In this document: positions 11,483 through 57,388 of the stretch, piece after piece | Position numbering within the stretch: the stretch's first letter is position 1 | Layout: every line of letters starts with the position of its first letter | Origin: Corallium rubrum | Taxonomy: Eukaryota; Cnidaria; Anthozoa; Scleralcyonacea; Coralliidae | DNA length: 64,000 nucleotides | NCBI GenBank assembly: GCA_964035015.1 | Contig: CAXIUP010000237.1 | Coordinates: forward strand, 1-64,000 | Direction: 5' to 3' | Notes under the pieces: generated by a model | Told to the model about the DNA's origin: nothing | What the model saw: only the letters and a program-made list of their open reading frames with translations | Databases searched by the model: none | Program-made: the position numbers and the translations under genes

Positions 11483-11639
11483 TAAGAAGCCAGCACTGAT
11501 CATATTATTTGAGATCAGTGGAAGCCAGTACAATTTATTTATACAGTTGTTACTTGTTACGGAGCCAATTGACGGTTAAAGTGTCACTGAGACGAAATTT
11601 TCACCTCTCATTTTTATTTCATCATTGTAAAGTATACCC

Positions 11640-11880
11640 ACTTAAGTAGATTAACCTAGACATACAGGGTCGGAAGTGACGTCACGCTATGAACCGGAAG
11701 TAAATGTGTATGACGTCAGCACTTATTTAGCCCCCATATGATGTCATCAGCGTACGTACGCGTACGTACAGTACGTACAGCACATCCAGGGTCGGAAGTG
11801 ACGTCACAGGGGTGTGCGCACAGGCTGACGTCATCATTTTTGCGTACGTACGCGTACGTACCACTGACCTATATATTTAA
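11640..11880 (+). repeat. Solo fragment of the foldback element arm
   Basis: It matches 14.84-15.07 kb almost base for base: GATTAACCTAGACATACAGG, TGACGTCA octamers, and the CGTACGTACGCGTACGTAC palindromes. It is a separated partial arm, or the end of an older relative, in the same orientation as the left arm. Confidence 0.8.
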
Positions 11881-12672
11881 CTGGACTGCGGGTGCTGGTC
11901 AAAAATGTGACCGCATTTTCACTTTCAAAATGGCGGCATTTATGGGTCCTTCTGCTAATGGTAGCGACCACTGACATGTACTTATCGTAGGAAAACAGAA
12001 TATTTTTGTAAACACAAAGCGATTTTCTTACTTTATTAATAAATCGTTCCTATGCGAGGGCTTCCCCAGAGGTGAATAAAATCGTCTGGCGTTAGCCAGA
12101 ATAAAATACTAAAGAGTAAAGACCAATAAATTCGGACAGGAAAGAGTTAATGCATGCAGGTTGGTCATTGTTAATTTCTTGTGGAACAACTCAAGAGGCC
12201 TCCTGGATTATTTGTCTGACCAAATACTAAGAAGGACTCGGTACGCCTCGCTTCTTTACGATTTTGTCGTGATCTTCAGCGGTTCTTTATAGAGCTGGCG
12301 ACTTCATAAAACGAAATGTTTGTAGATTTCCATGACCATGTGTATTGACAGTCTTGTTTATTTTATTGCCAAGTGTTCGTGCGGTTACCGCCGGCCGGCG
12401 CGTCTTTTTAATTCAGACTGCTGGAAAGCTACAACAGTAATTGTCTAGGAATATTATTGTAGTTCAGAACTACAATAAGACCTTCTCATGAAAACATCCC
12501 GGGCCGCTCAGGCTCAGCAACAAACATAAATACTAGAAATATTTTGTTTACACAAACTCGAGACCAGGACGATATTATGCTGACTTGGCAAAAATTCGAC
12601 AAAGTTTCACCTAGTCCGTCTACTCCGAACGTTTTCTCAAGAAATAATCCACTGTAGGAGTTATAAAATATA

Positions 12673-14475
12673 TTAGAGAGCTTAAGCAAACGACGTTTTT
12701 GACAACACGGACGTCAGATGTCCGCGAGTAGACTGGATCTAAAGCGGCGTTCGTGGCGTCGCGCGTTTACGTTAAGCAACTCGCGTTCTTGATGCAAGAA
12801 CGTCCATACTCTATTAGATGATTTTACTTTTTAAACAAACCAATAATCATCTGTGCTAACAAGCATGTAAGCAAACTCTTTCCACCCAGCTAATGAAGAG
12901 ATGTATAAAACAGTTTCAGAAGTGGAATATAGGGGGTCATTGGCCTAAATTAGAAAACCAAAAAGTACAACAAAAATAGTTTATTTCATGAATGCCACAG
13001 AGAGTTATAATCCTGCAAACTAGATTTTTATGTTACAATAAATGTTAACTGTATAATAATATACATGACAAAATTACTACATCCTGATTAATTATATTAA
13101 TTATACAGTAATACATTGTTTGAACAATGACAGTTTAAAGAGTACAGAAAATAAAATCACTTGTAGTGCCATAATATTGAATTGCATAACACCATAGTAC
13201 ATAAGTCCTTGGGCTTGACTTGATAGTTGTCTCAATTGTTTACTCACACAATCCAGCCTTTTATAGCTTACTCTAGCTGTTTCCATCCACTTCCTTCAGA
13301 CTTTCCTTTGTAGTATTAGCTGTTATTATAAATATACAAAAAATAAATTACAAGCTACACTATGGAACACCATCAGAAAATGTAATTTAGAATGTGCATG
13401 AACTTAGGATATCAAGTAAAATAAAGTGTAAATTAAGTTAAAATTCAGAAACTATTGAGAGTTCGAGGCAGTTTTTAATGAATCAGGATAAACTATAACT
13501 AATTGATATTTTCTTATGAAATGCTCGAGGCCGGACAATCATTTGGATGTTTAAATGTAAAAAATAGAATATCATACGGACTGCATTTCGATTAGACAAT
13601 TGTGAAATGCAATTGTTATTGGACATCTTAAAATCAGAGATTCTTACAAGACAATGTAACCTGTGATTTGCTAAAACCCCAAAATTTCCGCCAGCTTCTG
13701 CATGAACTTATGCAACGAGATAATTTTGAAAACTTATATAGCTATCGTTTTGCTTTGCTCAATTATAAAAGGACTCGACGCTTTCAAGCAAACAAAACTG
13801 CCCAGAAAAATAGTTTTTAATATCAAGTAACACTCTTCTAGATTATTTCTACGGGTAAAATGCTTCAAATTTTTGATAAACTATAAACTTTAGAAAACAC
13901 AACTGCCTGAAACTTGTTTGTAAAAATAATAATATTCGTTGTGGGAAATTCTGAAATTTGAATTATCGAAGTGATATCTCTCTCAAACAAAATGCATGAT
14001 CTTGTGAACACAATTTCATTTCAAAATGTCTTGCTAACAAGTGTTACACAAGCAGTAAAGATGGATAAACGAGTAAAACAACCAACTACACCAGCTTTTA
14101 AATGAAATATATCTATGAAAATGCTTTTGGAGGAACTAGAAACAGAAGACATCTACTGTAAAACATCGGTTTATTAATCGAAGCTATATCTGCCGTAAAA
14201 ATAGTTGACATGAATTTGCTTCTAAAGATTCAGTAAAATATGCATTTGAGAACACTATCTATGAACGTTTTACTGCAAAAGATGTAAAATTTGGTCCAGA
14301 AATTACACTTACCTTGAGGCGTTCTTGATCATCAACACGTACCGCAAAACTTGAGGTTTGGCGTCGGTGACTTCACTTCACGGACGTGATGTCCTCAAAC
14401 CCCGCGAAAACAACGACAGTTTACTTCCGGTTGACGTCCGTGTTATCAAAAACGCCGCTTGCTTAAGCTCTCTAA
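12673..14475. mobile_element. 1.8 kb non-autonomous inverted-repeat element
   Basis: The left terminus TTAGAGAGCTTAAGCAAACG continues to about 12715; the right terminus at 14432-14475 is its inverted copy with a few mismatches. Internal sequence shows no transposase and only short, unsupported open frames. A 55-bp sequence just left of it (about 12618-12672, with TTTTCTCAAGAAATAA) is repeated directly at about 14630-14682, too long to be a simple target duplication. It may be the remnant of a host repeat. Confidence 0.55.
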
Positions 14476-14721
14476 TGGCAGAAAGATAATTCACCTTGCT
14501 ACAACATACGTACAGTTCATCCGACCAAATAGCTTAGTTTCCCTAAAAAAAGAGAAATACCAAACATGTCCAATCATAATAGCGGCAGCTATTTTGAAAT
14601 TTTTTTTCCGTATGTATTATAATGTCTTCTCCGAATGTTTTCTCGAGAAATAAACCACTGTAGAAGCTATCAAATATACTGGAAGAAAGATAACAGCCAT
14701 GAGATGTTGTTGTTAAGACTA

Positions 14722-15039
14722 TGACGTCAAAGGCCTCCAGTTACACTTTGGACATTTTAATGGGGGCCGTCAAATTTAAGATTTCTACTCGCAATAACAG
14801 CGACTCTTTTTTGAGTTTCGAGTTAAAACTTCGTACAGTAGGTTGTAAGTGAGTAGATTAACCTAGACATACAGGGTCGGAAGTGACGTCACGCTATGGA
14901 CCGGAAGTAAATGTGTATGACGTCAGCACTTTTTAGCCCCCATATGATGTCATCGGCGTACGTACGCGTACGTACAGTACGTACAGCACATCCAGGGTCG
15001 GAAGTGACGTCACAGGGGTGTGCGCACAGGCTGACGTCA
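14722..15039. promoter_or_regulatory. Cluster of five TGACGTCA (CRE/ATF-type) octamers in the left arm
   Basis: Perfect TGACGTCA palindromes occur at 14722, 14884, 14918, 15005 and 15032, and again mirrored in the right arm (about 18236-18551). TGACGTCA is the consensus site for CREB/ATF bZIP factors. The number in 320 bp is far above chance. They may be element-encoded promoter sites or binding sites for movement, or may simply be palindromic building blocks. No function is shown by the sequence. Confidence 0.45.
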
Positions 15040-15651
15040 TCATTTTTGCGTACGTACGCGTACGTACGCGATATCATCAAATTCCCCATAAATTCTTTTT
15101 TTTCGGAATAAAGAACACAATGCTCGCGGGCTACTTTTCGACAGCTATTTCGGAACGCACTCGGGTTTCCTTCGGTCATCATCGTATTATTTCAAGATGG
15201 TGAAGATCGATAAATAAAAACAGTATTGGAACAGTTTGGCTTGCTTTTTTTCCCTTTCTTTTTTAGTGAATATGAGGAAAAAGATGGATTTGTGACAGCG
15301 TTCAGGTTTTTCTAATTACCAAGCCATTTTAAATTATCTTTCTTTTTGGATTAATGATCACAGTGACAATGTGCATTAGACACTTTTATAAGTTTATGTA
15401 CACTGAATTACTTAAACCGATGTTTTATAAGTTTATGTACACTGAATTATTTAGACTGATGTTTTATAAGTCTACGTGAGAATTTTCTACCATAACTAAA
15501 CACTTAATAAGTATACTGTTCAGGTTTTTACGTTGTTTGTTTATGTAAATGGTTACACGAGAAAGAAACGTCATGTGGCTATTTTCAATGGGTACCTGAA
15601 CCAGCAAAGTCGTCCCGCGTTGAAGAGCCGTTCATTTTTGTGAGATGAGAA

Positions 15652-16160
15652 GATGAGCACGTGCTCATAACTGCTCTGAGCACTTGCTCATTGGCTCATA
15701 AGTGCTCTGAGCACTTGCTCATTGGCTCATAAGTGCCCTGAGCACTTGCTCATTGGCTCATAAGTGCTCTGAGCACTTGCTCATTGGCTCATAACTGCTC
15801 TGAGCACTTGCTCATTGGCTCATAACTGCTCATGAGCACTTGCTCATTGGCTCATAACTGCTCATGAGCACTTGCTCATTGGCTCATAAGTGCTCTGAGC
15901 ACTTGCTCATTGGCTCATAACTGCTCTGAGCACTTGCTCATTGGCTCATAAGTGCTCTGAGCACTTGCTCATTGGCTCATAAGTGCTCTGAGCACTTGCT
16001 CATTGGCTCATAAGTGCTCTGAGCACTTGCTCATTGGCTCATAAGTGCTCTGAGCACTTGCTCATTGGCTCATAAGTGCTCTGAGCACTTGCTCATTGGC
16101 TCATAACTGCTCTGAGCACTTGCTCATTGGCTCATAACTGCTCTGAGCACTTGCTCATAT
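15652..16160. repeat. 31-bp tandem array in left arm (about 16 copies)
   Basis: The unit contains the exact palindrome AAGTGCTCTGAGCACTT followed by GCTCATTGGCTCAT. Variants change AAG to AAC or insert AT (CTCATGAG). The mirror-image array is at 17171-17646, with the variant order largely mirrored. Confidence 0.95.
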
Positions 16161-16425
16161 GGCCCGATCAGGCCGATGACCTGTTTTCTGACTAGACGTC
16201 CTAACCTGGGCAAGCCCAGGCTTGTCATGCTCCAGGACTTATTATTGCTTAAAAAATGAAACAAGACACAATACAATTTTGATAAATTTTTATTTCACAT
16301 AAGCATTACATCGATTCACTGATCATCATCACTATCTGAAATTCCTAGTCCAAAAATCAAGTGGTGTTTATTAATAAGGACTTTCCGTCCCTACTCGTCA
16401 TTTACAGGTTGTCTGAGCTGGAAGA

Positions 16426-16983
16426 ATGAGCTGCCAATATTGTGGGAAAATGTTTAATAAAGGCTATAATCTAAGACGGCACGAAAACGATTGTCCGTCA
16501 AGGGAATACACTGACACTGAGGAGCCTGATATGGAATCTGATGAAGAAATGTCAAGCTCGTCGTATGATGAAAACAGTCAGAGTTCCGAAGATGAGGGTG
16601 AAATAAAGGAAGAGATTGATCCTTGGGCAACCATGATTGACGATGCAAAAGTGACGGTTCGGCCAGAATATGATGAACTATTAAAAACGTTGCAAATGGA
16701 AGGGCAAGAAGAAAGTGTAGCTAAGCAGAAAGCCTTTGAAAAAATTCTTCCTGAACTTCAGAAAGAATTCGCTGACGTTTACGTGGATAATTTACATTGG
16801 ATGAAAGCACTTAAAAAGGATCCTGTGCATGGAAAGATCATGGAAACGAAGCAGACACTTGTGAACGAAGACTCGTTTGATCCTGATGAAGCTTTATCTG
16901 CAGCGGTTGACAAAAGAAAGTTTCTTTTGAAACAGCTTTTAGAAGATCAAGGACGTTTTTCAGATAGTGATGATGATCAGTGA
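16426..16983 (+). CDS. Zinc-finger, acidic protein carried by the foldback-like element
   Basis: An intact 185-aa frame. Residues 3-23 form one zinc finger with spacing C-x2-C-x12-H-x4-C (CQYCGKMFNKGYNLRRHENDC without its last residue is the core), normally a nucleic-acid or protein contact. Residues 28-70 are strongly acidic and serine-rich (MESDEEMSSSSYDE). Residues 80-150 look helical and charged (KAFEKILPELQKEFADVY). The C-terminus ends in SDSDDDQ, and those codons lie in the right inverted arm. A TTTACAG acceptor-like site lies just upstream (16401-16407), so an upstream exon is possible. AATAAA follows the stop within about 25 bases. I do not recognise the family. Preservation of the frame in an otherwise non-coding element suggests it is, or recently was, under selection. 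A DNA-binding role in the element's own movement or expression is speculation. Confidence 0.7.
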   Translation: MSCQYCGKMFNKGYNLRRHENDCPSREYTDTEEPDMESDEEMSSSSYDENSQSSEDEGEIKEEIDPWATMIDDAKVTVRPEYDELLKTLQMEGQEESVAKQKAFEKILPELQKEFADVYVDNLHWMKALKKDPVHGKIMETKQTLVNEDSFDPDEALSAAVDKRKFLLKQLLEDQGRFSDSDDDQ

Positions 16984-17170
16984 ATCGATGTAATGCTTAT
17001 GTGAAATAAAAATTTATCAAAATTGTATTGTGTCTTGTTTCATTTTTTAAGCAATAATAAGTCCTGGAGCATGACAAGCCTGGGCTTGCCCAGGTTAGGA
17101 CGTCTAGTCAGCAAACGGACCATCGGGCCTGATCGGGCCTTATAGGGCCAAAACGGGCCTGATCGGGCCA

Positions 17171-17646
17171 TATGAGCAAGTGCTCAGAGCAGTTATGAGC
17201 CAATGAGCAAGTGCTCAGAGCAGTTATGAGCCAATGAGCAAGTGCTCAGAGCACTTATGAGCCAATGAGCAAGTGCTCAGAGCACTTATGAGCCAATGAG
17301 CAAGTGCTCAGAGCACTTATGAGCCAATGAGCAAGTGCTCAGAGCACTTATGAGCCAATGAGCAAGTGCTCAGAGCAGTTATGAGCCAATGAGCAAGTGC
17401 TCAGAGCACTTATGAGCCAATGAGCAAGTGCTCATGAGCAGTTATGAGCCAATGAGCAAGTGCTCATGAGCAGTTATGAGCCAATGAGCAAGTGCTCAGA
17501 GCAGTTATGAGCCAATGAGCAAGTGCTCAGAGCACTTATGAGCCAATGAGCAAGTGCTCAGGGCACTTATGAGCCAATGAGCCAGTGCTCAGAGCACTTA
17601 TGAGCCAATGAGCAAGTGCTCAGAGCAGTTATGAGCATGTGCTCAT
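17171..17646. repeat. 31-bp tandem array in right arm (about 15 copies)
   Basis: Inverted copy of the left-arm array, unit GAGCAAGTGCTCAGAGCACT plus TATGAGCCAAT. It has one less repeat and private variants (CAGGGCAC, GAGCCAGTG), so it is not an exact mirror. Confidence 0.95.
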
Positions 17647-18580
17647 CTTCTCATCTCACAAAAATGAACGGCTCTTCAACGCGGGACGACTTTGCTGGTT
17701 CAGGTACCCATTGAAAATAGCCACATGACGTTTCTTTCTCGTGTAACCATTTACATAAACAAACAACGTAAAAACCTGAACAGTATACTTATTAAGTGTT
17801 TAGTTATGGTAGAAAATTCTCACGTAGACTTATAAAACATCAGTCTAAATAATTCAGTGTACATAAACTTATAAAACATCGGTTTAAGTAATTCAGTGTA
17901 CATAAACTTATAAAAGTGTCTAATGCACATTGTCACTGTGATCATTAATCCAAAAAGAAAGATAATTTAAAATGGCTTGGTAATTAGAAAAACCTGAACG
18001 CTGTCTCAAATCCATCTTTTTCCTCATATTCACTAAAAAAGAAAGGGAAAAAAAGCAAGCCAAACTGTTCCAATACTCTTGAAATAATACGATGATGACC
18101 GAAGGAAACCCGAGTGCGTTCCGAAATAGCTGTCGAAAAGTAGCCCGCGAGCATTGTGTTCTTTATTCCGAAAAAAAGAATTTATGGGGAATTTGATGAT
18201 ATCGCGTACGTACGCGTACGTACGCAAAAATGATGACGTCAGCCTGTGCGCACACCCCTGTGACGTCACTTCCGACCCTGGATGTGCTGTACGTACTGTA
18301 CGTACGCGTACGTACGCTGATGACATCATATGGGGGCTAAAAAGTGCTGACGTCATACACATTTACTTCCGGTCCATAGCGTGACGTCACTTCCGACCCT
18401 GTATGTCTAGGTTAATCTACTCACTTACAACCTACTGTACGAAGTTTTAACTCGAAACTCAAAAAAGAGTCGCTGTTATTGCGAGTAGAAATCTTAAATT
18501 TGACGGCCGCCATTAAAATGTCCAAAGTGTAACTGGAGGCCTTTGACGTCATAGTCTTAACAACAACATCTCATGGCTGT

Positions 18581-20406: not shown

Positions 20407-23400
20407 CTAGGAGGCCTTACGGGGCCTCCGCCAACCCGAAACAAGTGAATAGAAGTGCCGCCGCCGCAATTTTCCGTTTCGTAAACGGTCGTTGCCAACC
20501 CGAACGGTCGATGCCAACCCAATGTCCCTATGTGTATTGTGTACCCCTATGTGTACCATTGCCATGCGGTAATCCTTTTCACGAGCAAACATCTTGTTGC
20601 AACATGAACACTTCTGTTTTTCTTCCAGCATGCCTGTGTCCAAATCTTCTCGCTTTCGTTGTGCTTCATGTTTCCATTCCTACAAAATAACATAAAGGTC
20701 ACACCTTCTCATTATTTAACTAAACAGCCATTCCATAGTGGACAATGCCTGTGGGTAATTGTGGTGATTTTTGTTTTCACATTCCAGAAGGCCAACTAGG
20801 TATTGTAGCACCCAAGGTATTGTACAGTAGGTTTTATTATGTTAATTTTTTTTCCAACAATGTGTCATTTCTGTGGAATGGCTGTAAATATTGTTCATTG
20901 ATTCCATTAATGAAAACAACAAACATAAATTAAATGACTTACCCTTCTTCTTTCTCCCCCTATCTGTCTCCACATACTTGCTGCCAGAGAACAAGCCTTC
21001 CCAATGTTGGCATCGTTATCTAGTTTGTTCATTATAGCTGGCTGTGTAAAACAATGCAAATTTTTAAATCAAATAATAGCCAATAAAGGAGTGTTCATAA
21101 TTTACCCATGGGGGGGGGTGGGGGGGGGGGTGTGTTATTGGGGGTATGGCAATTTTGAGGGGGGGGGGGCATGATTTTTCAACAATAAGTTTGTTTTTCA
21201 ATAGTTAATAACACTTTACAATTTGTTACAATCTATTCAATAAAAATAAAGCAACCAGTACAATAAATTAGTAACTCAAATTAACACTCAATTTTTTGGG
21301 ACTGTTTTTATAAATGACTGGAGTGGGCAAACGTGGGTGGAGTGGACAAACTCGGTGGAGTTACTGGAGTGGGCAAGAGTTACTTGGGCCACAAACTGCA
21401 CAGAGTTGCGTGCGGAGTACACTAAAGGTTTCTGTCTCAATAACAAGGCAGCACTTCACTTGCAATAGTAACTTCTAGTATTATTCAAGACCACAATCTA
21501 TAACCCGTAAAAATAAAATCTTACAGACACTTTATTTTATTTTGTAATGGAAATTTATCCATGACTTCTGGTAGCAAAAACTATGATATTATAATCACAA
21601 TTCAAAAGATAACCAGCCAATTACAATAGTTCATTCAATCACCTGACTCCAGTGAAACTCAAGATATTAGATGAAAACTGGTGTTCATCTAATTCTTAAG
21701 ATCTAAATTATCTATGCAAAATAAACAAGTTGCTGTATGAATAAATTCTCCACACACTCATGAATAAAATCTCATGAGGGTTTATTTTAATTGCATTTTC
21801 AATTGAAATCACTCGATTGAGATGCCAAAAGATTTTTCTCTGCCACTTTTAATTTAGCCCAAAGCAAGCTTGCTTTAGATAAGGAAGCCCTGGGGAGATA
21901 TTTAAAGTAATATAATTTTATAATTCACCACTTCAACGCTAAAACCCACGTGTAGTGTCACGTGATGCAAAACGTAAACAAAGTCGAAAAATGCGGACAT
22001 TCAGCGCGGTGCGTCAATATGGTGGCCACTAAGAGATGCGCTTGGGGAACTTGTAAAAACGATTCTAGATACCCCCATTTAATGGTAAAAAATAAGAATG
22101 GCGATCCGGTACACTTTGTTCGATTCCCTGCTCCGAAAAGATTTGTGGATAAGCGACTGCGATGGATTGCGGCTTGTCATCGAGGCGATTCGTTTGTCTG
22201 CTCAAAAGACAGCTATATCTGTAGTTTACACTTCGCCGGAGAGAAAGGACCCACATCAGAAAACCCGGATCCCGTTTCGGCAATAGCCAGCAAAGAACAG
22301 GTAAGTTGTCTTTTTCTTCAGCATATCGATTGTACTTTTTCTTAGGTTCCTAAGCACTCGATCATTGTTTGGTATTAGACAAGGCGACTTCAAAAGAAAC
22401 GCAGACAGCTAGTCCGAACAGATCCCGCGAAGAAGCGAAGACGATTGTCAGTAGAGAAAGAGACTGCCCTTTCTCTTTTAAAATTAGCCGAATCTGTTCA
22501 CAACGAAGTTCCAAAACCAGTGGAGGAGGAATTATCTATTGCAGAAATTTTGGTGGCATTTGGCGAGACTGTAAACGTGGCAAAGCACGACTCAGATTGC
22601 AACCTTAAACAGCAAACGACTGAAAATAAAGTACCCTGTACCTCACAATCTCCGTCAAACAGCGAAACCTGTGATAAATTTACGGATCAAGACGATTGTC
22701 TAGAGTTGGCCAACACCACTGAAAAGTGAAATACTAGCTTGTAAACATTATTGCATCCACTAATTATTATAATTAATATGTAAATTGTTTCACATTTTCA
22801 CGAAACATTAAGAGAAATCTTTTAAGGAAAAATGCTGATGGAGCCTTTGGTATTTTAAAGCAGTGTGGACAGTTTATTTAATGTAATTTTATTTAATATA
22901 TAATCTCTTTCTGAATAGTCTTATTATAATATAGTTATATTTTGATCATCAACTTTAAATTAACATCTGCATATTTTTATTTCTTTGGTAGACAACCATC
23001 TCTGCTATAAGATAAAAAGAAAACATACCACTATACAGGTATGTTTACCACTTTATGTTGTCATTAGTAATTTACATGTTAAATAAAGACATTTTGTTTA
23101 GCAAGAAAAACAAAAATTAAATAGATCGAATTTAAATCTATGTCACCTGGATGTTTACTACAGGTGTGTCTAAGGGATGTCTGGATTTAATCTACCATAC
23201 AGTCGAGAAAAAAGCCAAGCACTTAATTATGTGGAAAGGGTTCAAGAGAACAAGGAAAAATGCAAAGAAGTTGAGCGAGAAATACACTAAGGTATGGTAA
23301 ATTAAAAGTAATGCTGTGCTAGTTTGTGATAGTAAGAAACAATTTGTCATAATTTATAACTTGCTTAATATTCTTTATTGATGATAATAATAATAATATT

Positions 23401-25796
23401 AATAATTTATTACCTATAAATAATAATAATGTAACATAATCAAACTCAAAACAGAATTCAAAACAGGTAGTTGTCAATGAATCTTATCAAATGAATTGTT
23501 CAACTTGAGGAATATATTGCAACAATATTTTAGGAATGCTTCTATTGCCATGACAGTAATATATATGTTACATTATTGTTATTTATAGGTAATAAATTAT
23601 TAATATTATTATTATTATCATCAATAAAGAATATTAAGCAAGTTATAAATTATGACAAATTGTTTCTTACTATCACAAACTAGCACAGCATTACTTTTAA
23701 TTTACCATACCTTAGTGTATTTCTCGCTCAACTTCTTTGCATTTTTCCTTGTTCTCTTGAACCCTTTCCACATAATTAAGTGCTTGGCTTTTTTCTCGAC
23801 TGTATGGTAGATTAAATCCAGACATCCCTTAGACACACCTGTAGTAAACATCCAGGTGACATAGATTTAAATTCAATCTATTTAATTTTTGTTTTTCTTG
23901 CTAAACAAAATGTCTTTATTTAACATGTAAATTACTAATGACAACATAAAGTGGTAAACATACCTGTATAGTGGTATGTTTTCTTTTTATCTTCGACTAA
24001 CTTCATAAATAGATAGCGCTGTAAATTCCTGGTGTTTTGCAATTCTGCATTTGAGTAAAGACGTATATCTTCTGCAGAGATGGTTGTCTACCAAAGAAAT
24101 AAAAATATGCAGATGTTAATTTAAAGTTGATGATCAAAATATAACTATATTATAATAAGACTATTCAGAAAGAGATTATATATTAAATAAAATTACATTA
24201 AATAAACTGTCCACACTGCTTTAAAATACCAAAGGCTTCATCAGCATTTTTCCTTAAAAGATTTCTCTTAATGTTTCGTGAAAATGTGAAACAATTTACA
24301 TATTAATTATAATAATTAGTGGATGCAATAATGTTTACAAGCTAGTATTTCACTTTTCAGTGGTGTCGACTGTCGAGAGACATTAATTTATGGCCTATTA
24401 GTAGAGACTACACGGCCATACCTGTGTAGTTTTGTCTTTGGCCAACTCTAGACAATCGTCTTGATCCGTAAATTTATCACAGGTTTCGCTGTTTGACGGA
24501 GATTGTGAGGTACAGGGTACTTTATTTTCAGTCGTTTGCTGTTTAAGGTTGCAATCTGAGTCGTGCTTTGCCACGTTTACAGTCTCGCCAAATGCCACCA
24601 AAATTTCTGCAATAGATAATTCCTCCTCCACTGGTTTTGGAACTTCGTTGTGAACAGATTCGGCTAATTTTAAAAGAGAAAGGGCAGTCTCTTTCTCTAC
24701 TGACAATCGTCTTCGCTTCTTCGCGGGATCTGTTCGGACTAGCTGTCTGCGTTTCTTTTGAAGTCGCCTTGTCTAATACCAAACAATGATCGAGTGCTTA
24801 GGAACCTAAGAAAAAGTACAATCGATATACTGAAGAAAAAGACAACTTACCTGTTCTTTGCTGGCTATTGCCGAAACGGGATCCGGGTTTTCTGATGTGG
24901 GTCCTTTCTCTCCGACGAAGTGTAAACTACAGATATAGCTGTCTTTTGAGCAGACAAACGAATCGCCTCGATGACAAGCCGCAATCCATCGCAGTCGCTT
25001 ATCCACGAATCTTTTCGGAGCAGGGAATCGAACAAAGTGTACCGGATCGCCATTCTTATTTTTTACCATTAAATGGGGGTATCTAGAGTCGTTTTTACAA
25101 GTTCCCCAAGCGCATCTCTTAGTGGCCACCATATTGACGCACCGCGCTGAATGTCCGCATTTTTCGACTTTGTTTACGTTTTGCATCACGTGACACTACA
25201 CGTGGGTTTTAGCGTTGAAGTGGTGAATTCCTAAAAATTATATTTTAAGCCTCCGATTTAATGACTTAATATGGTCATGTGACTCGCGTGACACCAGAAA
25301 TGAGAAAGTTTCAATCATTGGCATTCTTATTATTTATTTTTATACTGGCAACCTATTAATGTTATCATCATGTTTTCTCGTGTTTGGATCCCCTGATGAA
25401 ACACTCAAACTCGTTGTTGATATAATACATCATATAGCAAAGCGCACAGTTGCTGTTTATAAACCTAAAATGTGGACAAACAAACTGAAATCGACTCTCA
25501 AGGGATTCAAAATGAACGTTTTTCTACTGTTGGCAACTCAGCATTAATGAAAAATGCGGACAAACATGCTGAAATTGATGACACTGACGTCATCTGTGCG
25601 GAGCGCTATTTTAATATTGTTTATGTAAATTGATTTCATTCAAAAATATGTTGTTATGAATTATTTATGTTTTGGCAAAAGCACGTTTGTGACTTACCGC
25701 AACCCCTTGATAGAAGATGTTCCATCCACTTGGCTTTTTTATCGAGGATTTCTTTGGATTGTTTGGTGCTTGACTTTCTTCGTTTTCCTCCGCCAT
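20407..25796 (-). CDS. HMG-box-like protein, three exons, TE-filled first intron
   Basis: Exons on the minus strand are 25698-25796 (ATG at 25796), 20943-21041 and 20407-20679. The two introns have GTAAGT donors and pyrimidine-rich AG acceptors. Exons 1 and 2 are each 99 nt, so all junctions are phase 0. The joined protein of about 156 aa has KKPSGWNIFYQG, then NDANIGKACSLAASMWRQI, then ERRREWKHEAQRKRED, which follows the HMG-box pattern (aromatic near the start, central W, basic-aromatic third helix). It is followed by CSCCNKMFAREKDY, a Cys pair that may be half of a zinc site. HMG-box proteins bind and bend DNA in the nucleus. The last about 45 codons overlap an inverted repeat (20477-20540) and may not be genuine protein. 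Intron 1 (4.66 kb) contains the THAP palindrome. The family match is by eye. Confidence 0.55.
20477..20540. repeat. 60-bp inverted repeat, partner at 25858-25925
   Basis: TTTTCCGTTTCGTAAACGGT at the left is found inverted upstream of the HMG-like first exon. The unit itself has two related halves (CGTTGCCAACCCGAACGGTC and GATGCCAACCC). The pair brackets the HMG-like gene almost exactly: one copy lies in its last exon, the other about 60-130 bp before its start codon. Confidence 0.8.
21042..21900. other. Intronic sequence with poly(G) tracts
   Basis: Two G-runs lie at about 21110-21130 and 21160-21171, with AT-rich sequence around them. No coding sequence. Confidence 0.5.
22019..23291 (+). 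pseudogene. THAP transposase-like gene, left-arm copy, disabled
   Basis: Exon 1 (22019-22300) encodes a THAP zinc finger: CAWGTCKND, PVHFVRFPAPKRF, RLRWIAACHR, YICSLHF, then PTSENPDP. Exon 2 (from 22379, phase 0) encodes a basic stretch (QKKRRQLVRTDPAKKRRR) and an acidic tail, and now reads into a stop at 22727. Compared with the right-arm copy, about 78 bp spanning the exon 2 donor is missing, and 77 bp is missing from exon 3 (22992-23038), which puts a stop in that exon. Exon 4 (23164-23291) remains. THAP domains bind DNA, and many come from P-element, Kolobok or related transposases. A truncated 200-aa THAP product is still possible from exons 1-2. Confidence 0.7.
23711..25132 (-). CDS. 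THAP transposase-like gene, right-arm copy, four exons preserved, 3' part missing
   Basis: Exons (minus strand): 24851-25132, 24422-24772, 23964-24087 and 23711-23838. Donors are GTAAGT, GTATGG, GTATGT and GTATGG. Exon lengths give phases 0, 0, 1 and 0, and each next exon opens in exactly that phase. The product of at least 295 aa has an N-terminal THAP finger (CAWGTCKND...YICSLHF), a basic segment, then AEDIRLYSNAELQNTRNLQ and LIMWKGFKRTRKNAKKLSEK. The latter two segments recall the linker/HTH region of THAP-type transposases. No catalytic DDE domain follows: the gene meets the palindrome centre right after exon 4. The upstream ATG at 25186 is also in frame, but the inner one gives the usual THAP start a few residues before the first Cys. 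Confidence 0.65.
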
Positions 25797-25857
25797 TCTC
25801 GATAAAATTCATGCACGCCACAAAACAACAGGGAACCGGGGGTACACATGGGAAGAC

Positions 25858-25925
25858 AGGGACATTGGGTTGGCATCGACCGTTCGGGTTGGCAACGACC
25901 GTTTACGAAACGGAAAATTGCTACG
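25858..25925. repeat. Inverted partner of 20477-20540
   Basis: GGGACATTGGGTTGGCATCG followed by ACCGTTCGGGTTGGCAACG mirrors the copy in the last exon of the HMG-like gene. It lies in the presumed promoter or 5' UTR of that gene. Confidence 0.8.
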
Positions 25926-26543
25926 CCGTGACCATGTCTTAATTTCAAAGGAATTTCTATTCTAAGATTTATTAAGCCTTCTTAATAATGAACACTTGAG
26001 AATTCTTATTAGGGAGCCGTTTATGAGAATAGTCTATTCAAAAAATATTGCAAATGACAGGATTATGTCTTAATAATAGCAGTGAATTTGTTATCGGGAA
26101 ACTTTTTAGTTACTTAAATCACCTTGCCGTGGAATAATAAAAATCAAAAGTCATTGATTTTGTTTCGTTTATCCTTTGAAATCGATCTTTCTGTAGGTTG
26201 GCTTATTTGGTCTGGGTTTAACAGTAGCATTGATGTATCTAACGTTGCAAAATTAATGAAAATCAATAACTGTATCTCTAGGAATAGTGCAGGAATGACA
26301 TGCGGATACAATATGTACCTGCACTATGAAAATATATCACAAGTTAGGACTGTTTTTCATTACGCTTTGGTGCATTGTTTACTGTTCGCTTTGGAAATTG
26401 AATTTTATAGCCAGCTTGGGTTGCGTCCACAATGACCTAAGTGGAAAATAGTCTTTATTAGCACTTAAACGAGTTCGATTCAGAGCCCCGCAATGAGATT
26501 GTAATGCATTTCCTTTTAACTTCAATTCCTAATCTTCTTTAAG
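25926..26543. other. Intergenic or intronic; no exon resolved
   Basis: This lies between the HMG-like gene start and the first visible exon of the recombinase-like gene. An open frame at 26124-26435 has no recognisable content and no phase-2 donor that I can support. Confidence 0.4.
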
Positions 26544-29500
26544 ATTTGACATGGTTGAAATACTTGGAAAAAGAGGTCGAAAAGTCCCAGTCACCTTGAC
26601 TCCAGACGTAAAAAATGCAATCGAGATACTTAACAAGGCAAGAGATGAAGAAGATGTTATGGTGTCCAAAGTCAACCAATTTATATTCGCCGTCAATGAT
26701 GGAAATTCCTTGAATCCGTTAAGAGGCCATGATGTTATCAAAATGGTATGCAATATGGCTAATTTGAAGCAACCGGAGCTTGTCACGTCAACGAATTTGA
26801 GAAAGTACGTGGCAACAATATCGCAGCTGGTGGATATGAACGAAACAGAGATGGGGTGGCTGGCAGGCCATCTTGGGCATGACATTCATATCCACAAGGA
26901 GTATTACCGAATGCAACCAAGTACTCTAGAAATGGCAGTGGTCGGAAATTTGTTGATGGCCGTGGATGAAGGAAGGGCACACAAATTTAAAGGAAAACAT
27001 CTTCGCGACATAAAATTAGACGGTATGACGATAATCTTATCTTATTTTATCCATCTATCCATCGATCCATCCATCAATCCCAATGGTTGTGGGATTGCAC
27101 TTGGGTTTAACTTGTAATATTTCATAAACGAGTGAGAGTGTATTACCGGGGTTGTACAAACTCAAGAGAACAATGGCAATCGCTTGGCCATAGCCCGAGT
27201 GATTTTCGTTGTTCTCAAGTGTTTGTGAAACAAGAGCGATGATGAAAATTGCGAAGCTGTCAGCCCGAGTTATTTTTATGGTTCTCGAGTGTTTTATATA
27301 CATTCACAAAACACGATCCGGCTATCAGCTGAGTGATTTTTCATTGTTCTCCAGTGTTTGTAATCCATACGAGTCACGAGCTTATGAAATACCTTCTCAA
27401 TCATCTATTGTATACATGGTTAACTTTTCTATGTATAAACCGTTAAACTGGTTTCTCAATTATAAATCTGGTTTGCATGACTTTTACCGGGTTTCAAAAA
27501 CCTATGCACGAGGCGAAATATCCTAGCATGATTGGCTAATGGATGATTTGCCAATCCCGATGCCCCCTTGGTTTTGCGCGGCCAACGTAATGCATTATGG
27601 GATCGAAAGGGGGACAAAGAAATTTGCTTTTTAATTACCTTATCCAAAACTGTTCGATTACTTCTATTTCGGAACACCGTTCTAGCTAGTTCTTTCGATA
27701 TCAGAATATTTCATATCTTTTAACATCTTGAGGGAGGTACACTGGTACTGTCTGCAAAATTTGTGAAATAACAAATAATAATCAGAACGACTTACGACAG
27801 TCATTTAGAATGTAAATGTGAGACTAAATCGAGATACATTTAACAATTAGACAATGAGCCCGAGTTTTCATGAGCAGAAAGTCAATGAGGGCACAGCCCA
27901 AATCGATTATCGCTCATATAAAACAAAGGCAAACTGTCTAATTGTTTTAGTATATACCAACAAGTTTAAATAGTATTTTAGAACTTTTGAATAAGAAGGT
28001 ATAAAGAATTTAACCACCAGTTTATCGATGTCACAGTGTAATACCCTAGATTTTCAATGTGAAACAACAAAAACGTTAAATCAAATAATTCCTAAAAGCA
28101 AAACATTTGTTCATAGCCAAAAACTAGTCAGTTTGGAAGTATCAAGCATTTTGATTAATGTATCCCAGAGGTGATTATCGGAACAAATCGCGTAGCCTGC
28201 TTCATGCAAGCGGTTCGAGTGAAGTCCGCTGAATCTCATGCACTCATATGAATTTTGTAGCTATTATCGATCTTGAATATTCAACGGTGAATACTTTTTT
28301 AAGTTAGCATACCTCCTTGGCCTCCCGTTTCCTTCCCACGTTCAAGTTTATTCACAATCTAAATATAACTTTTAAAAGCAAAAATTTTATCAAACTTCAA
28401 GAAAAGCGTAAAGAAATATTTTGACATTACGCTTGCCAAGTTTCAGGAATGCGTGCATAACGTTGAGCATCACCAATTACATTTCAGTTGTTTAACTCTG
28501 ATCTGCAGGACAAGATTTACCAAATACTTAGCTTATTCTAAATATACTTATTTCTGATAAAGCTTGGCATACACAGTGTTGTACTGCCTGGTTACGTGTT
28601 TCTTGAGGTTTGATTAAAATATTTGCTTTTGTAGAAAATATATTATGAGCATGCATAGAAATGATTTTTTCACGTGACTATACACACAATGACAGTTTCT
28701 CCAAGACAATAAAAAAGTGAAAACAAATTTCCATATTTTCACTTTAAAAAGCGCCATGTATCGTTCCGTTTAACCGTCAGCGTGATTGTAGTAGGCATGC
28801 AAGATCTCTGAGTGGCGGGTTTTCTGGGATTTGATGTGGTTTTATGCTGTGGTATTTTCTGTTGCCGTGGTTTAGTTTCGATTTGTATTGTTTGGCTTCC
28901 CTGATGAGATACGCAGTTAAATCTAAAGAATTATTTTTTGTCTTTCTTGACAGTTGGAGCTAAGTATAGTGGGTAAGTCAATGGGTCTTTTAAGGTTGCT
29001 CGATACAGTTTTAGAAAAACTGAAGGGTATATCGGCGTGAAGTTTTTAAATTTTGTATTTTTAAGCATCACAGATTTTATTCTTGGTAAAATGAAATATT
29101 TTTGCTATTCATGAGACAAAATGTTGAAATGTATCGCCTTCTTTTTTTAAAAAAATGAAGATTTTGATGGTGTCAGCAAATGAAACACTTACGTGAATTA
29201 ATATAACACAAACGATGAAAAAATCGAGACTATGCCGTACATATAATCGAGAGTGCCGAACATATAATTATAACCTCGCAAAGTCCGTTTACGGGCCCGT
29301 TAATATTATAGCCGCAGTGATTATACAAACGTCTGGCCGACACTCCCACGCTTGTATTTCTTTGATTTCTGTCAAATTCCAGCTTGTTAAAGAGTCGTCT
29401 ATTTCATGCGGAACAAGTGCTTCATTTTCTTTGCAAAGTGTGATTTATGGTTCAACAGTTATTGTTGAAAAAAGCAGTGCGTATTACACAAGGTGAAGAC

Positions 29501-32500
29501 GATATAAACAGACGACCATGTTGTCAGTTGACTGAACTTGACGTATTCCACATTCCAGCAACCTGATTGGCTTTGAGATTTTCCAAGACGGACACCTCTT
29601 TAAGGCAGACACCAAACTTGGTTCCAAGACTGTCAGCCTAAAAGAGATTTTACTGATTTGTGAAAGTAATTAAGGCTTAATTCAGACGTCAACCTTTTCA
29701 TGTGCGAAGTCTAATGCACATCAAGTTACACTTAGACAGTTAATTAACATTAGATTCTGCGCTTGAACTTGGTCTTAAATAGTCCAGTGACCGAAGGGTG
29801 TGGGCAGTCAGAACTGGATTAGGTCTAAAATGGAAAAAAAAATTCAAAAAGTATCACGCGTGCACTTTTAAATTAGGATCAAATACCAATGAATTGTACC
29901 GGTAGTTTATACTTACAGATGACCTCTGAATAGTAAACAAAATCAATGACCAATCCGTAACTGATTTTCCCAATAATAAGAAAGAACACAAAAGTCTCGG
30001 GTTCAAAAGGAATAGAGTACTCATTCAAACATTTGCAGATTTGCGTTGTAAAAGACATTGTCTATTTGTAAAGGGTGTTTTACAAAACATGTTTGAAAAA
30101 ATGTGGGAACATGTTTAAAATCATATTGGATGCATTATTTCAACCAGTGCTAAAAAAATTAAAACGGTTCTACAGAAGAAGAAAAAATTAATATTGAAAT
30201 AGGAGAAGCTGAAAATCTTAAAGTAATATTGTGTTCATTATAAATGAAGATTATATCAAGATGCCTCGCTTCGATATTATCAAGATGCCTCACTTCAAGA
30301 TTATCATGATTCTCGCATTATTATTATTATTATTATTATAATTATTATTATGGAGTTTTAAACTTCAAAACCTACGCTTAAAGGTTTGCTAAGAATAGTC
30401 CGGAGGAAGAACAAAAAAGGAGGGTATACGTTTTAGAAATCCTGTATCCGAACAGAACAGAATAGAAGAAGAAAGAGTTTACTGAAATAGAAACCTGACC
30501 GCCAAATATAAACTTCAATTTCCTATATATTTTCTAAACGTAATTTCGAGCTCGGTTTGATTGGAAGATATGGCTGAAGCACCTCAAAGAAAAAGGAAGA
30601 ATATAACTTGGACAGACGAGATGATCTCCGACTTGCTACAATGTAAATTGGCTGCACAAGAAGCGGTTAAGAACGATCACCCGAACTGTTATCGAGGGGA
30701 ACGAAAACTTGGTTATATGGAGCTGATGAAACAACTGTGGGAAGTGAAAGGCTATGAGTGTTTGAGTTTATCAGCACAAAATCTACGCGATAAAGCGGCC
30801 TACGCCGAGAAACGTCTGGAAAGTGTAAGAGAGACAAATGGGGTAAGGCGTATTAGTTCAAGTTCAACTTCAATCAAGGAAGGAGATAAAATAAATATAC
30901 AAGCAGAGAATGAACAAACACGGCCTCAAATTTGCATAAGCGATCAAGTCCAAATTTGCATAAATGATCACGCTCAATCTACAGCCAACATGAACGAGTA
31001 TGATGACATTGCCCTTGGTGACGGAACATGCTTAGGCCCAATTCGCCCAAATTTACCAGAAATTAAGGTTTTACCATCTCAACCCAAGGACAAGACCTGG
31101 GGAAGCTTGAGTTACGACATCCTCTATGATAAGATCAACGATATTTATAATGAAATCGTACATTTTAGAAGAAACATCTTTAAGATACCTTCAGGAAGGG
31201 CTGGGAAAAATTTTATTAAAGAACTTACATTCTGGTTAAAACAATTCAACTCCAGTTCAGACCTGAACTCAATCGCTTTGAAATCCTTCATGGTGCTTCC
31301 TTCGCTGATACTACAAAAGCCTTCAGCAACCTCTAAAGCTAAAGATCACAGTGCAGCTATTGACCATAGATTAACCCTGTGGAGACGTGGAGACCTTGAT
31401 CTCTTATTGAAAGAAGTGAAATTCATACAGAAAAAGTTTGTAGCGTCGAAGAAAGCTAGATCTGTTGATGATATCTCCAAGGTCTTCGCCAAATTGATAA
31501 TGCAAGGGAAATTGTCTGCAGCACTAAAATTTCTCGACAGGGAGAGTTCGTCAGGTCTTCTCACCCTAACACCCGAAGTCTTGGTAGAGCTGAAACTAAA
31601 GCACCCACAGGCCTCAGAGATCGATGACGAATGTCTCCTACACGGCCCAGTAAACCTCGTTCCACCTCATATTTTTGATGTGATTGATGAGCAAAAGATC
31701 CACGACGCTGCCATGAAAACAAAGGGCTCTGCGGGACCCTCGGGAATGGATGCTGAACTTTACCGCAGGATCCTATGCTCAAAGAATTTTAGCACGGTGG
31801 GAAAGGAATTGAGGGAAGAAATTGCTAATTTGACGAGAAAGCTGTTAACAACAAATTATCACCCTTCTCTGCTCGAAAGCTATACAGCTTCTAGGCTTAT
31901 TCCACTTGACAAGAATCCCGGGATCAGACCGATAGGAGTTGGGGAAGTACTGCGAAGGATAATCGGGAAAACTGTATCATGGACCCTAAATGACGAAATC
32001 AAAGAGGCAGCTGGTCCTTTACAAGCTTGCGCTGGTTACAGCGCGGGTGCTGAAGCAGCGATTCATGGCATGAGCCAGGTCTTTGCAGAAGAAGAAACAG
32101 ATGGAATCTTGTTGATAGACGCTAGGAATGCTTTCAATCAAATGAATAGATCTGTGGCATTGCACAACATTCAGATAACTTGCCCAGAAATGTCATTGTA
32201 CATCATAAACACCTACCGAAAGTCATCCAGGTTATTCATTTCGGGTGGAGGTGAGATCTTATCACAGGAGGGTACCACGCAAGGTGACCCATTAGCAATG
32301 CCTTGGTACTCCGTCAACACATCCATCATGATCCAAAGTTTAAGTCTGGCCACACCCGATGTCAAACAAGTTTGGTTGGCTGATGATTCAGCGGGAGGTG
32401 GAAGAATTAAGTCATTATATAATTGGTATAAATTCCTGAGTTCGGAAGGAAAGAAATTCGGTTACTTGGTTAATGGGAGAAAAAGCTGGCTAATAGTGAA

Positions 32501-38763: not shown

Positions 38764-38882
38764 GTCTACGACCATGTCACTGGAAAGGCACCGGTTCCCG
38801 TCAGATCACCGAAGTTAAGCCCAGTGGAGCGGGGTTAGTACTTGGATGGGTGACCGCCGGGGAATACCCCGTTGTTGTAGAC
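38764..38882 (+). rRNA. 5S ribosomal RNA
   Basis: A 119-nt sequence from GTCTACGACC to TTGTAGAC; the two ends pair to form helix I. The internal RNA polymerase III control region is intact: GATCACCGAAGTTAAGC (A box) and TTGGATGGGTGACCGCC (C box). A T-rich tract (CTTTTTCTTTTCTTTTTTT) follows within about 6 bases as terminator. Several stem positions look covariant (ACTGG with CCAGT). It is a single copy here, not part of a visible tandem array. It is either a dispersed functional 5S gene or a young pseudogene; the intact promoter and terminator favour function. Confidence 0.88.
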
Positions 38883-40192
38883 TCCTCCTTTTTCTTTTCT
38901 TTTTTTGCAAACGTATTCTACTAAACTTGTTCTGGATAAACTTTGTGCTTTTGTATTTGACTAATTAGTGAAAAATCAGATAAAAAATCAGTTTATTTAT
39001 ACCCTAGAGAGCCCTTGTCTCTAACAAGAGGCCGATCTCGTACCCAGAGCCTTTGTTGCGCAGGGAAACAAACGCTCTGGCTCTTTGGTATACTCATAGT
39101 TGGTATACTGATAGTTGATTGAGGGAGATGGTTAGGAAACTTCATAAAATCCGGATCCGTTGTTCTAGGTGTTTGTGTACCTTGTGCACAGTCACGGTTG
39201 AAAATTCTATTGTGTTACTATTGTTTTACCTTTGCGAACTAAGATAGCAGTGTAGAAGGGATTTGGCACTACCTCGAACCAGAAGCCAAAACAAACACGT
39301 ATACTCGAAAGGTCAAAAAGGTCATATGGTAACTGTTCTTGTGAGTGTTTTAATGTACAAAACACACCTTCCCATATCTTTCTTGGTATCACCCCACTGG
39401 AACCACAGCTGACTTCAGACCTCGCATATTGTTCAGTATTGGTTATATATCTAGTACTGATATATTTTCACATTTAGTCGTGAAAGTTGAGCTTGCCTGC
39501 CCACCTGCAGGCAGCTTTGCTACTAAACAAACAAATTGTAGGCCACGCGCATACACACCTGCTTGCTTGCCCAGCTACCTGTGTACTCGTCTGCCTGCTT
39601 GTCTGCCCACGCAGCGCGCGCTTGCCCGACTGCCTGCCTACTGCTTCCGCATGCCTACGTGCCCGTGTGCAGGAGGCTTGCTAGACTGACACACTGAAAA
39701 TCAACTTTATTCTATTTTAAATAATATACATGCCACAGGAAGGTCACATTTAAAAATACATTCTCAAAGTATAGAGAAAGCGGTAACCCAAAAATAATTA
39801 GTTAATCATGTACACAGCACATTAATGCACCAGTCAATATAACCCCCCCCCCAACCCCCCCCCCCCCCCCCCCAGGCCGGGACATAGCGGGGCATTACCG
39901 GGGAATTTCCTGTGATTTGATAGGGAAAACGTACGCGCATACTACATACTTCGAGTATTTTTATTGCATGTAAGTAAAACTGCAATCGTCACCAGGGGAT
40001 TTAGCCCTGATGACGCGAGAATGAGATTAGTGGTTGGCCCATATTTCTTTTGAAATTGGCCCAGGGTAGCAGGCGAGCTCTGGGTACCAATCAAATCCCT
40101 TTCCGGTAATGGATTATCCTAGAGCATTTCCCAAAGCCTCCCCAGCATATCATCTTATCTAGAATTCATGATTATCGTTATTTGTGAAATGG
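38883..40192. other. No gene; poly(C) and degenerate CTGC tract
   Basis: 39.48-39.68 kb is a degenerate CTGC/CTGT/CCTG tetranucleotide region; open frames there are artefacts. 39842-39873 is a poly(C) tract. Nothing else supported. Confidence 0.5.
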
Positions 40193-53382: not shown

Positions 53383-53673
53383 TTCTAATTCAGAATGTCC
53401 TCAGAGACATGAGAAAATTTTTCATGATGTCTTACACCGCTAAAGTCAACCGAACAATTTTTCGGCTGACTCGAGCGAGATTTTAACTCGCACCTTCCGG
53501 ATTCCGGTCCGCCGCTCTACGCGGCTCGATAGCTCAACAGGTAGAGCGGCGGACCGGAATCCCGAAGGTGCGAGTTCAAATCCCGCTCGAGTCAGCCGAA
53601 AAATTTTTCGGTGTAAGCAGTGTAAGACATCATGAAAAATTTTCTCATGTCTCTGAGGATGGTTCTGAATTCT
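53383..53673. repeat. 290-bp palindrome built of two tRNA-like units
   Basis: Two arms of about 135 bp (53383-53519 and 53540-53673) are inverted copies around a 20-nt loop. Each arm carries the T-arm and anticodon-arm part of a tRNA-like sequence; only the plus-strand one is complete. The flanks (CCTCAGAGACATGAGAAAAT) are also mirrored. Confidence 0.85.
53523..53593 (+). tRNA. tRNA-like sequence (degenerate anticodon arm), probable SINE head
   Basis: 71 nt. The acceptor stem GGCTCGA/TCGAGTC pairs fully (one G-U), the D arm GCTC/GAGC pairs, and the T arm GCGAG/CCCGC with loop TTCAAAT has one mismatch. The A box (TAGCTCAACAGGTAGAGC) and B box (GAGTTCAAATCCC) are good. The anticodon stem has two mismatches, and position 33 is C instead of T (nominal anticodon GGA). 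It is therefore unlikely to be a working tRNA and more likely a tRNA-derived SINE or pseudogene. Confidence 0.6.
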
Positions 53674-57260: not shown

Positions 57261-57332
57261 TTTCCAGACTGCTTCAGAAGTCTTTGTTAAAAAAATCCCG
57301 ACAAGGATAAGGGCGATTGAAAGCTTGCACAT
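57261..57332 (-). CDS. First exon of a secreted protein (signal peptide), copy 1
   Basis: ATG at 57332 opens MCKLSIALILVGIFLTKTSE, a textbook signal peptide (short positive start, hydrophobic core, small residue before the cut). It ends at a consensus donor, GTAAGTACT (57260), in phase 0. A TATA-like CATAAAAG lies about 57 bases upstream. I could not find the second exon with confidence: no Cys-rich or other recognisable frame follows with a good acceptor before 55.9 kb. Secreted-peptide genes with a signal-peptide-only first exon are common in cnidarians. The mature product is unknown. Confidence 0.5.
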
Positions 57333-57388
57333 ATTTTCTCCAGATGACGCCTTTTCAAAGTGTGATAAACAGCACGAGTTTGCCGGTC

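What the first reader, a model, noticed from the sequence alone, without database searches (positions are those of the whole stretch)
14693..18580. A 3.9 kb foldback-like element that carries its own zinc-finger gene across the arm boundary
Seen: near-perfect inverted arms of about 1.65 kb leave only 0.61 kb of unique centre, which is almost exactly one intact 185-aa ORF. The ORF's last nine or so codons are arm sequence, so the left arm carries a mirrored copy of its C-terminus. The arms contain tandem 31-bp repeats as in foldback elements. Known: foldback elements usually have no gene, or carry an unrelated one. Inference: a small DNA-binding protein (zinc finger plus acidic region) held in the loop of a palindrome may be a distinct mobile architecture, perhaps with the protein acting on the arm repeats.
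Basis: partly seen in the sequence, partly recalled or inferred. Interest (0 to 1): 0.85.

Follow-up and report, generated by a model that had tools for sequence, protein, structure and literature searches.

The report
Palindromic mobile element, probable Polinton satellite
This is one copy of a large family of mobile DNA palindromes that keep a small zinc-finger gene in the loop and have ends like those of giant virus-like transposons (Polintons), whose machinery they probably borrow, which would mean that foldback elements can arise from that lineage too.

Summary
The palindrome is real (14693-18580; arms 1,649 and 1,623 bp; loop 616 bp; intact 185-aa ORF), but it is not the mobile unit. The element is 11645-18421 (6,777 bp) between 6-bp duplications CACTTA; a near-identical empty locus lies on contig C155. 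The palindrome's outer 159 bp are host flank (18422-18580) and an inverted copy of it (14693-14851), a trace of right-to-left arm copying.

Of 20 fetched copies, 18 have exact target duplications (17 of 6 bp, one of 8 bp in a repeat) at AGTAG...CTACT ends; one is offset by 3 nt, one masked. Six-base duplications, AGT-type ends and long inverted repeats resemble Polintons/Mavericks. One of nine large units with such termini (14.9 kb) holds a protein-primed PolB. A second zinc-finger gene precedes the ORF in 80 of 150 copies; 5 of 63 distant relatives lie just downstream of PolB genes.

Verdict: a multicopy, foldback-like, non-autonomous element, probably a Polinton satellite: a new variant of a known kind. 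Integrase and protein function are untested.

The parts
11639..11644 (.). left copy of the 6-bp target duplication CACTTA
   Evidence: equal to 18422-18427; single CACTTA in the empty locus C155
11645..18421 (+). the whole insertion (6,777 bp), termini AGTAGATTAACC...GGTTAATCTACT
11645..11861 (+). remnant of the original left terminal repeat, 217 bp
   Evidence: 99% identical to 14852-15067 and to the reverse complement of 18206-18421
11862..14692 (.). X: another dispersed repeat nested in the left arm, itself interrupted, truncated at 14692
   Evidence: pieces 86-96% identical to L032 7560-8590, with inverted ends there
14693..14851 (-). inverted copy of the right HOST flank 18422-18580 (1 mismatch)
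14852..16341 (+). left arm of the element (re-copied from the right half, inferred)
15663..16163 (+). 31-bp tandem array, 16.1 copies
16342..16957 (+). unique loop
16426..16983 (+). P0001, 185-aa ORF: C2H2-like finger, acidic stretch, predicted helices
16958..18421 (-). right arm of the element
17167..17636 (-). 31-bp tandem array, 15.1 copies
14876..15040 (+). cluster of CRE (TGACGTCA) and ETS-CRE sites in the outer left arm; mirrored near 18234-18390
18422..18427 (.). right copy of the target duplication CACTTA (first 6 bp of host flank)
18428..18580 (.). host flank (part of a dispersed repeat), template of 14693-14851

Best explanation
It is one copy of a large family of non-autonomous, foldback-like DNA transposons that are probably satellites of Polinton/Maverick elements. 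Shown: 18 of 20 fetched copies, and the window copy, have AGTAG...CTACT termini with an exact target duplication of 6 bp (8 bp in one repeat); 16 of 17 parsed copies carry the array on both arms with the zinc-finger ORF between; the window copy has an empty counterpart. Inferred: a Polinton-type integrase and protein-primed polymerase act in trans on shared ends. The palindrome arose because the P0001 3' side (3'UTR, 31-bp array, end) was copied in inverted orientation onto the other side, replacing the upstream zinc-finger gene to different depths in different copies. The copying can recur after insertion: in the window the left half appears to have been re-copied from the right half, through the terminus and 159 bp into host flank, and joined to a nested repeat. 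P0001 is kept intact, so it probably has a role in the life of the element; DNA binding at the ends or arrays is a guess.
For: Duplications and termini. Joined-flank query finds C155:47027-47459 end to end at a rounded 100%, and 37 copies of the host repeat cross the insertion point uninterrupted. 150 scored ORF matches, 131 without stops (counted from its table). Terminus pattern 124 forward and 115 reverse, backward control 0 and 0. One unit with such termini, C12:5585567-5600443, holds a PolB; a second PolB, C1:76606556, lies within 6 kb of such an end. Upstream zinc-finger gene before 80 of 150 ORF copies; 5 of 63 of its distant relatives within 5 kb of a PolB, all same strand and downstream, 0.10 expected, P = 8e-8. 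Published Maverick hallmarks: 6-bp duplications, (AG)3 or (AGT)2 ends, inverted repeats of 46-1,447 bp (PMC8097293, passages). Ends co-vary: 0.44 mismatches in 24 nt within a copy, 4.98 between copies. Inverted host flank inside the element. Different junction depths into the upstream gene, and the non-palindromic L042 with an array on one side only.
Against: Only 2 of 76 listed PolB loci show these termini (the terminus listing covers C1 to part of C13). Eight of nine large units have no listed PolB, and by eye none of the 150 listed A32-type ATPases (of 790 candidates) lies inside the nine; both lists are capped. No listed P0001 copy lies inside a PolB-bearing unit (nearest 17.8 kb). Exact (AGT)2 ends occur in only 2 of 18 parsed copies. 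Integrase was never searched. Arm identity within the window copy (0.966) is below its best match elsewhere (0.981). The X-to-inverted-flank junction could be a misassembly.
Confidence: 0.62

Rival explanations
1. A classical foldback element of the Mutator or P superfamily, moved by a cut-and-paste transposase, with a captured gene in the loop.
For: Architecture (long arms, internal tandem repeats, short centre) is that of foldbacks, most of which are attributed to Mutator (PMC4079207, passages); Galileo of the P superfamily also extends its repeats inwards (PMC3573991, passages).
Against: Duplications are 6 bp in 17 of the 19 fetched copies that could be tested, 8 bp in one repeat-embedded site and offset by 3 nt in one, against 8-10 bp reported for the Mutator-like foldback Tetris. 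Termini are shared with a PolB-bearing unit.
Confidence: 0.15
2. A non-autonomous element of some other superfamily that makes 6-bp duplications (known or unnamed); the PolB inside one unit with such termini is a chance nesting.
For: Only one complete terminus pair with PolB inside was seen, 8 of 9 large units show no listed PolB or A32-type ATPase, and integrase was not tested.
Against: The upstream gene's distant relatives cluster downstream of PolB genes on the same strand (5 of 63; 0.10 expected); a second PolB lies 4 kb from an end in similar geometry.
Confidence: 0.17
3. An assembly artefact: an inverted chimeric read or mis-joined haplotypes.
For: Near-identical arms, no duplication at the palindrome's own ends, and a second large palindrome in the same window.
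Against: Independent palindromic copies at many loci with their own termini and duplications; arms differ by substitutions, a 25-bp indel and array length; a unique 616-bp loop; an empty locus. Not excluded for the X-to-inverted-flank junction of this copy.
Confidence: 0.04

Closest known systems
Polinton/Maverick elements
   Same: 6-bp target duplications, AGT-type ends, long terminal inverted repeats (PMC8097293, passages); termini shared with one PolB-bearing unit here
   Different: Fetched and parsed copies are 2.7-5.3 kb (canonical part; the window copy is 6.8 kb with its nested repeat), palindromic, and show no PolB-sized ORF; vertebrate intact Mavericks are 12.7-24.6 kb with eight ORFs
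Foldback (FB) elements and Tetris
   Same: Long inverted arms with internal tandem repeats and a short middle
   Different: Conserved intact ORF in the loop; 6-bp rather than 8-10-bp duplications; Tetris copies lack conserved ORFs (PMC4079207, passages). The 31-bp repeats of Drosophila FB are recalled, not checked
Galileo (P superfamily)
   Same: Foldback-like; inverted repeats grow by recruiting internal sequence (PMC3573991, passages)
   Different: P transposase and, as recalled, 7-bp duplications; no such duplication length here
Snap-back defective genomes of linear DNA viruses (recalled, no call)
   Same: Inverted duplication of one genome end by a strand switch in replication would give the same plan
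   Different: Here the palindromes are integrated, multicopy and keep an intact gene

Membership tests
Polinton/Maverick | 6-bp target site duplication | tested here: met
   17 of 20 fetched copies exactly 6 bp, L043 8 bp within a GGTT repeat, L040 offset by 3 nt, L050 masked; window copy 6 bp
Polinton/Maverick | (AG)3 or (AGT)2 end motif | tested here: inconclusive
   Ends are AGTAG plus C, A or T; exact AGTAGT in 2 of 18 parsed copies
Polinton/Maverick | long terminal inverted repeats | tested here: met
   168 bp (L042) to more than 1 kb in the fetched copies
Polinton/Maverick | protein-primed PolB in the element | tested here: not met
   No ORF of that size in 18 parsed copies. Of nine large units with such termini one holds a listed PolB. 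So it is filed as a relative, not a Polinton
Polinton/Maverick | retrovirus-like integrase | not tested
   PF00665 search unanswered
Polinton/Maverick | packaging ATPase and capsid genes in the unit | tested here: inconclusive
   A32-type ATPases abundant in the genome (150 scored of 790 candidates; the family also rings in 2 of 14 control genomes), by eye none of the listed ones in the nine large units; capsid not searched
Foldback architecture | long inverted arms with internal tandem repeats around a short middle | tested here: met
   arrays on both sides in 16 of 17 parsed copies
Mutator-type foldback | 8-10-bp target duplication | tested here: not met
   6 bp in 17 of 19 testable fetched copies and in the window copy
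P superfamily (Galileo) | THAP-type P transposase in full copies | tested here: inconclusive
   No transposase-sized ORF in 18 parsed copies; larger units were not read

The most novel reading that the evidence does not exclude
A satellite lineage of Polintons that spreads as snap-back palindromes: it carries its own conserved zinc-finger cassette that recognises the ends or the 31-bp dyads, replicates as linear or hairpin DNA by a helper's protein-primed polymerase, rebuilds one half from the other in each cycle (hence identical ends within a copy), and integrates with the helper's integrase. It would be a virophage-like parasite of a virus-like transposon inside an animal-type genome.
Probability: 0.25. 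Interest if true: 0.82.

Novelty: new variant of a known kind. Interest (0 to 1): 0.63.

Why it matters
Most foldback elements are attributed to Mutator, with exceptions such as Galileo (PMC4079207, passages). If the link holds, foldbacks can also arise from self-synthesising Polintons, probably by replicative strand switching. A search for six phrases such as 'non-autonomous polinton' or 'mini-polinton' found no paper in the held library; that does not show it is unpublished. The window copy also records copying past the element's end into host DNA, a testable trace of how palindromes form, and the family keeps a zinc-finger gene whose job can be assayed.

Tried and rejected
Relatives of the 185-aa protein in IMG/VR, GTDB species genomes and phage records: none found. 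The 31-bp unit in IMG/VR: none. The upstream gene in IMG/VR: none. Pfam gives only weak C2H2 matches under cut-off; solved-structure sequences, PHROGs and NCBIfam add nothing beyond weak finger or chance matches. AlphaFold2 without an alignment is poor (mean pLDDT 55.8) and Foldseek on it gives nothing at E 0.001 or better in BFVD, so no fold claim is made.

Rejected: that the palindrome ends are the transposon ends (no duplication there); that the outer 159-bp arms are a palindromic host repeat with the element in its centre (the 40 listed matches include no second close inverted pair besides the window's own, and 37 copies run straight across the insertion point); that the 217-bp stretch at 11645 is a separate solo insertion (its left duplication pairs with the right end at 18421).

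Not answered: the genome search was often unreachable. The same requests were repeated later, in part after waiting scripts (105, 107, 111, 115, 117, 120, 125, 127). Arm copy number (window 15230-15640) and integrase remain untested. One search was a first dN/dS run that wrongly read minus-strand loci forward; it was replaced.
Full report
What is there. The genome of the window, G000, has 474 Mb in 312 contigs and the window is C247:1-64000; size and content are those of a eukaryote. The organism was not identified. Inverted arms 14693-16341 and 16958-18580 enclose a 616-bp centre. The ORF 16426-16983 gives 185 aa with one C2H2-like finger below Pfam's cut-off, an acidic stretch and predicted helices, the model being of low confidence. 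Its last 26 nt, 3'UTR and an AATAAA lie in the right arm and are mirrored in the left arm. Both arms hold a 31-bp tandem array, 16.1 and 15.1 copies.

The real limits. Twenty loci were fetched; they hold the hits ranked 2 to 22 of the 150 scored, one locus holding two. They showed ends of the form AGTAG[C/A/T]TTA...CTACT. Seventeen of 20 have an exact 6-bp duplication, L043 has 8 bp inside a GGTT repeat, L040 has AACGAT after an extra ACT, and L050 is masked on the left. In the window the canonical ends are 11645 and 18421 with CACTTA on both sides. Joining the flanks and searching the genome found C155:47027-47459, which matches the 433-base empty site from end to end at a rounded 100%. Of the other 39 listed matches, one is the window itself, 37 are copies of a host repeat that cross the insertion point with at least 53 bp on its left, and one (C39) reaches only 7 bp past it. 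So the insertion is real and recent. Whether C155 is the other haplotype is open: window 28000-28600 matches C221 at 97%, not C155.

A trace of arm copying. The 159 bp outside 18421 are host DNA, yet an inverted copy of them (1 mismatch) sits at 14693-14851, inside the element, between a truncated foreign repeat (11862-14692) and a fresh canonical left end at 14852. The original left terminus survives as 11645-11861. The simplest reading: after insertion, and after X landed in the left arm, a break or stalled fork was repaired by copying the right half in inverted orientation, through the terminus and 159 bp into host DNA, and joining to X. Order and mechanism are inferred; a misassembly of this junction is not excluded without reads. 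The internal copy equals C155, while 18422-18580 carries the one difference.

How the palindrome arises in the family. In 18 parsed copies (17 fetched plus the window) the left-arm inner end joins the leader at different places. Class A (window, L031, L034, L040, L045, L046, L048, L049) mirrors the ORF end. Class B (L033, L036, L039, L043, L044, L047) stops earlier and keeps about 50 bp of the 3' end of an upstream gene (L044 with a deletion). L037 has its own junction. L032 keeps that gene, a 69-aa zinc-finger ORF whose stop codon is the TAG seen in the window's leader. L042 is not palindromic: its inverted repeat is 168-169 bp and the array lies only on the P0001 3' side. L035 is a full inverted dimer with two ORFs, and 7 inverted ORF pairs are in the list of 150. 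This gives a direction: the 3' side of P0001 was copied to the other side and replaced the upstream gene to varying depth. That gene stands before 80 of 150 P0001 copies, and 79 of its 87 closer copies have P0001 just downstream. Arms of other copies carry further mirrored ORFs: one of about 150 aa (L037, L046, L047, in part L040) and a multi-finger C2H2 protein (L035, L049).

Link to Polintons, for and against. Published Maverick hallmarks are 6-bp duplications, (AG)3 or (AGT)2 ends and inverted repeats of 46-1,447 bp (PMC8097293, passages only). The genome has 199 reported matches to protein-primed PolB (76 of 1,079 candidates scored; 0 of 14 control genomes ring) and at least 150 to an A32-type packaging ATPase (150 of 790 scored; the family also rings in 2 of 14 controls). 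The pattern AGTAGNTTA...GGAAGTGACGTCA occurs 124 times forward and 115 reverse, with 0 and 0 for the backward control. Among 36 adjacent terminus pairs under 26 kb in the first 100 listed places, 24 enclose P0001. Twelve do not, and nine of those span 10-24 kb; one, C12:5585567-5600443, encloses a PolB with a 1,387-aa open frame, and one more PolB (C1:76606556) lies within 6 kb of such an end. Pairs were formed by adjacency and could in places join two elements. Five of 63 distant relatives of the upstream gene lie within 5 kb of a PolB, all downstream on the same strand, against 0.10 expected. Against: only 2 of 76 listed PolB loci show these termini (the terminus listing covers C1 to part of C13); 8 of the nine large units show no listed PolB and, by eye, none of the nine holds a listed ATPase, though both lists are capped; no listed P0001 lies inside a PolB-bearing unit, the nearest being 17.8 kb away; the exact terminus seen beside C1:76606556 occurs at only 5 places; integrase could not be searched.

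Ends evolve in concert. The first 24 nt of the two ends of a copy differ by 0.44 on average (identical in 16 of 18), but by 4.98 between copies. Arms are more alike within a copy than to the best other copy in 10 of the 16 copies with a comparison (for example L033, 0.999 against 0.985) and less alike in 6 (L031, L036, L042, L044, L045 and the window, 0.966 against 0.981). This fits copying of one end to the other, unevenly along the arms.

Selection. In the 30 best-matching copies pooled dN/dS is 0.435 (finger 0.83, acidic 0.24, core 0.37). Unique changes are 35 nonsynonymous to 19 synonymous where 4.39 to 1 is expected (P = 0.003). Variable columns by codon position are 11, 18 and 21 of 185 each, so position 2 is not quieter than position 1. 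Mean ORF divergence is 0.0117 (30 copies), against 0.0191 just upstream (17 copies) and 0.0146 in the arm (10 copies), but 0.0078 in the 3'UTR (12 copies). The sample was ranked by protein score, so this is supportive, not decisive. Of 150 matches, 131 have no internal stop (counted from its table).

Possible promoter. The outer arm is rich in CRE sites: 5 TGACGTCA in 14693-15092 against 0.01 expected, one of them in the copied host flank; the 217-bp remnant has 4. An ETS-CRE composite lies at both ends in 15 of 17 parsed copies. That these drive the ORF through a splice to the TTTACAG before its ATG is a guess.

Mechanism by step. Shown: insertion with a 6-bp duplication; many copies; palindromes with an open ORF; concerted ends; inverted host flank. 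Inferred: helper PolB and integrase from Polintons; strand switch or arm-to-arm repair synthesis as the source of the arms; a useful role for P0001. Not known: what P0001 binds, whether it is expressed, and whether the elements pass through extrachromosomal DNA.

Judgement. By structure it is a foldback element. By termini, duplication and gene neighbourhood it behaves like a non-autonomous relative of Polintons. It is not itself a Polinton, because PolB is absent.

Noticed in passing
window 20466-25921: A second large palindrome: arms about 21923-23438 and 23564-25230 carry mirrored copies of a THAP-like ORF (label recalled from the sequence, not scanned), with a perfect 64-bp inverted repeat further out at 20466-20529 and 25858-25921.
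   Followed up: partly
genome C20:2813095-2819970, C1:17719949-17727135, C49:8477462-8485208, C25:668822-677152: Four inverted pairs of PolB genes 6.3-7.8 kb apart; at C20 two zinc-finger relatives lie between them. PolB elements in this genome may also become palindromes.
   Followed up: partly
whole genome: A32-type packaging ATPases are very numerous (150 scored of 790 candidates), with a recurrent open frame of about 202 aa; what they belong to was not determined.
   Followed up: no
window 55615-64000: A tandem duplication of about 4.9 kb, pieces 91-96% identical.
   Followed up: no
window 30561-33905: A 1,115-aa open frame that looks like a non-LTR retrotransposon polyprotein (by eye).
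   Followed up: no
window 26533-27114: A 194-aa open frame with a tyrosine-recombinase-like motif (by eye).
   Followed up: no
window 38764-38883 and 53523-53594: A 5S rRNA gene and a tRNA-Ser(GGA) gene.
   Followed up: no
matches covering residues 21-185 only: A subgroup of P0001 copies matches only from residue 21 on, with a 168-aa open frame, as if the zinc finger were lost or replaced while the rest stays open.
   Followed up: no
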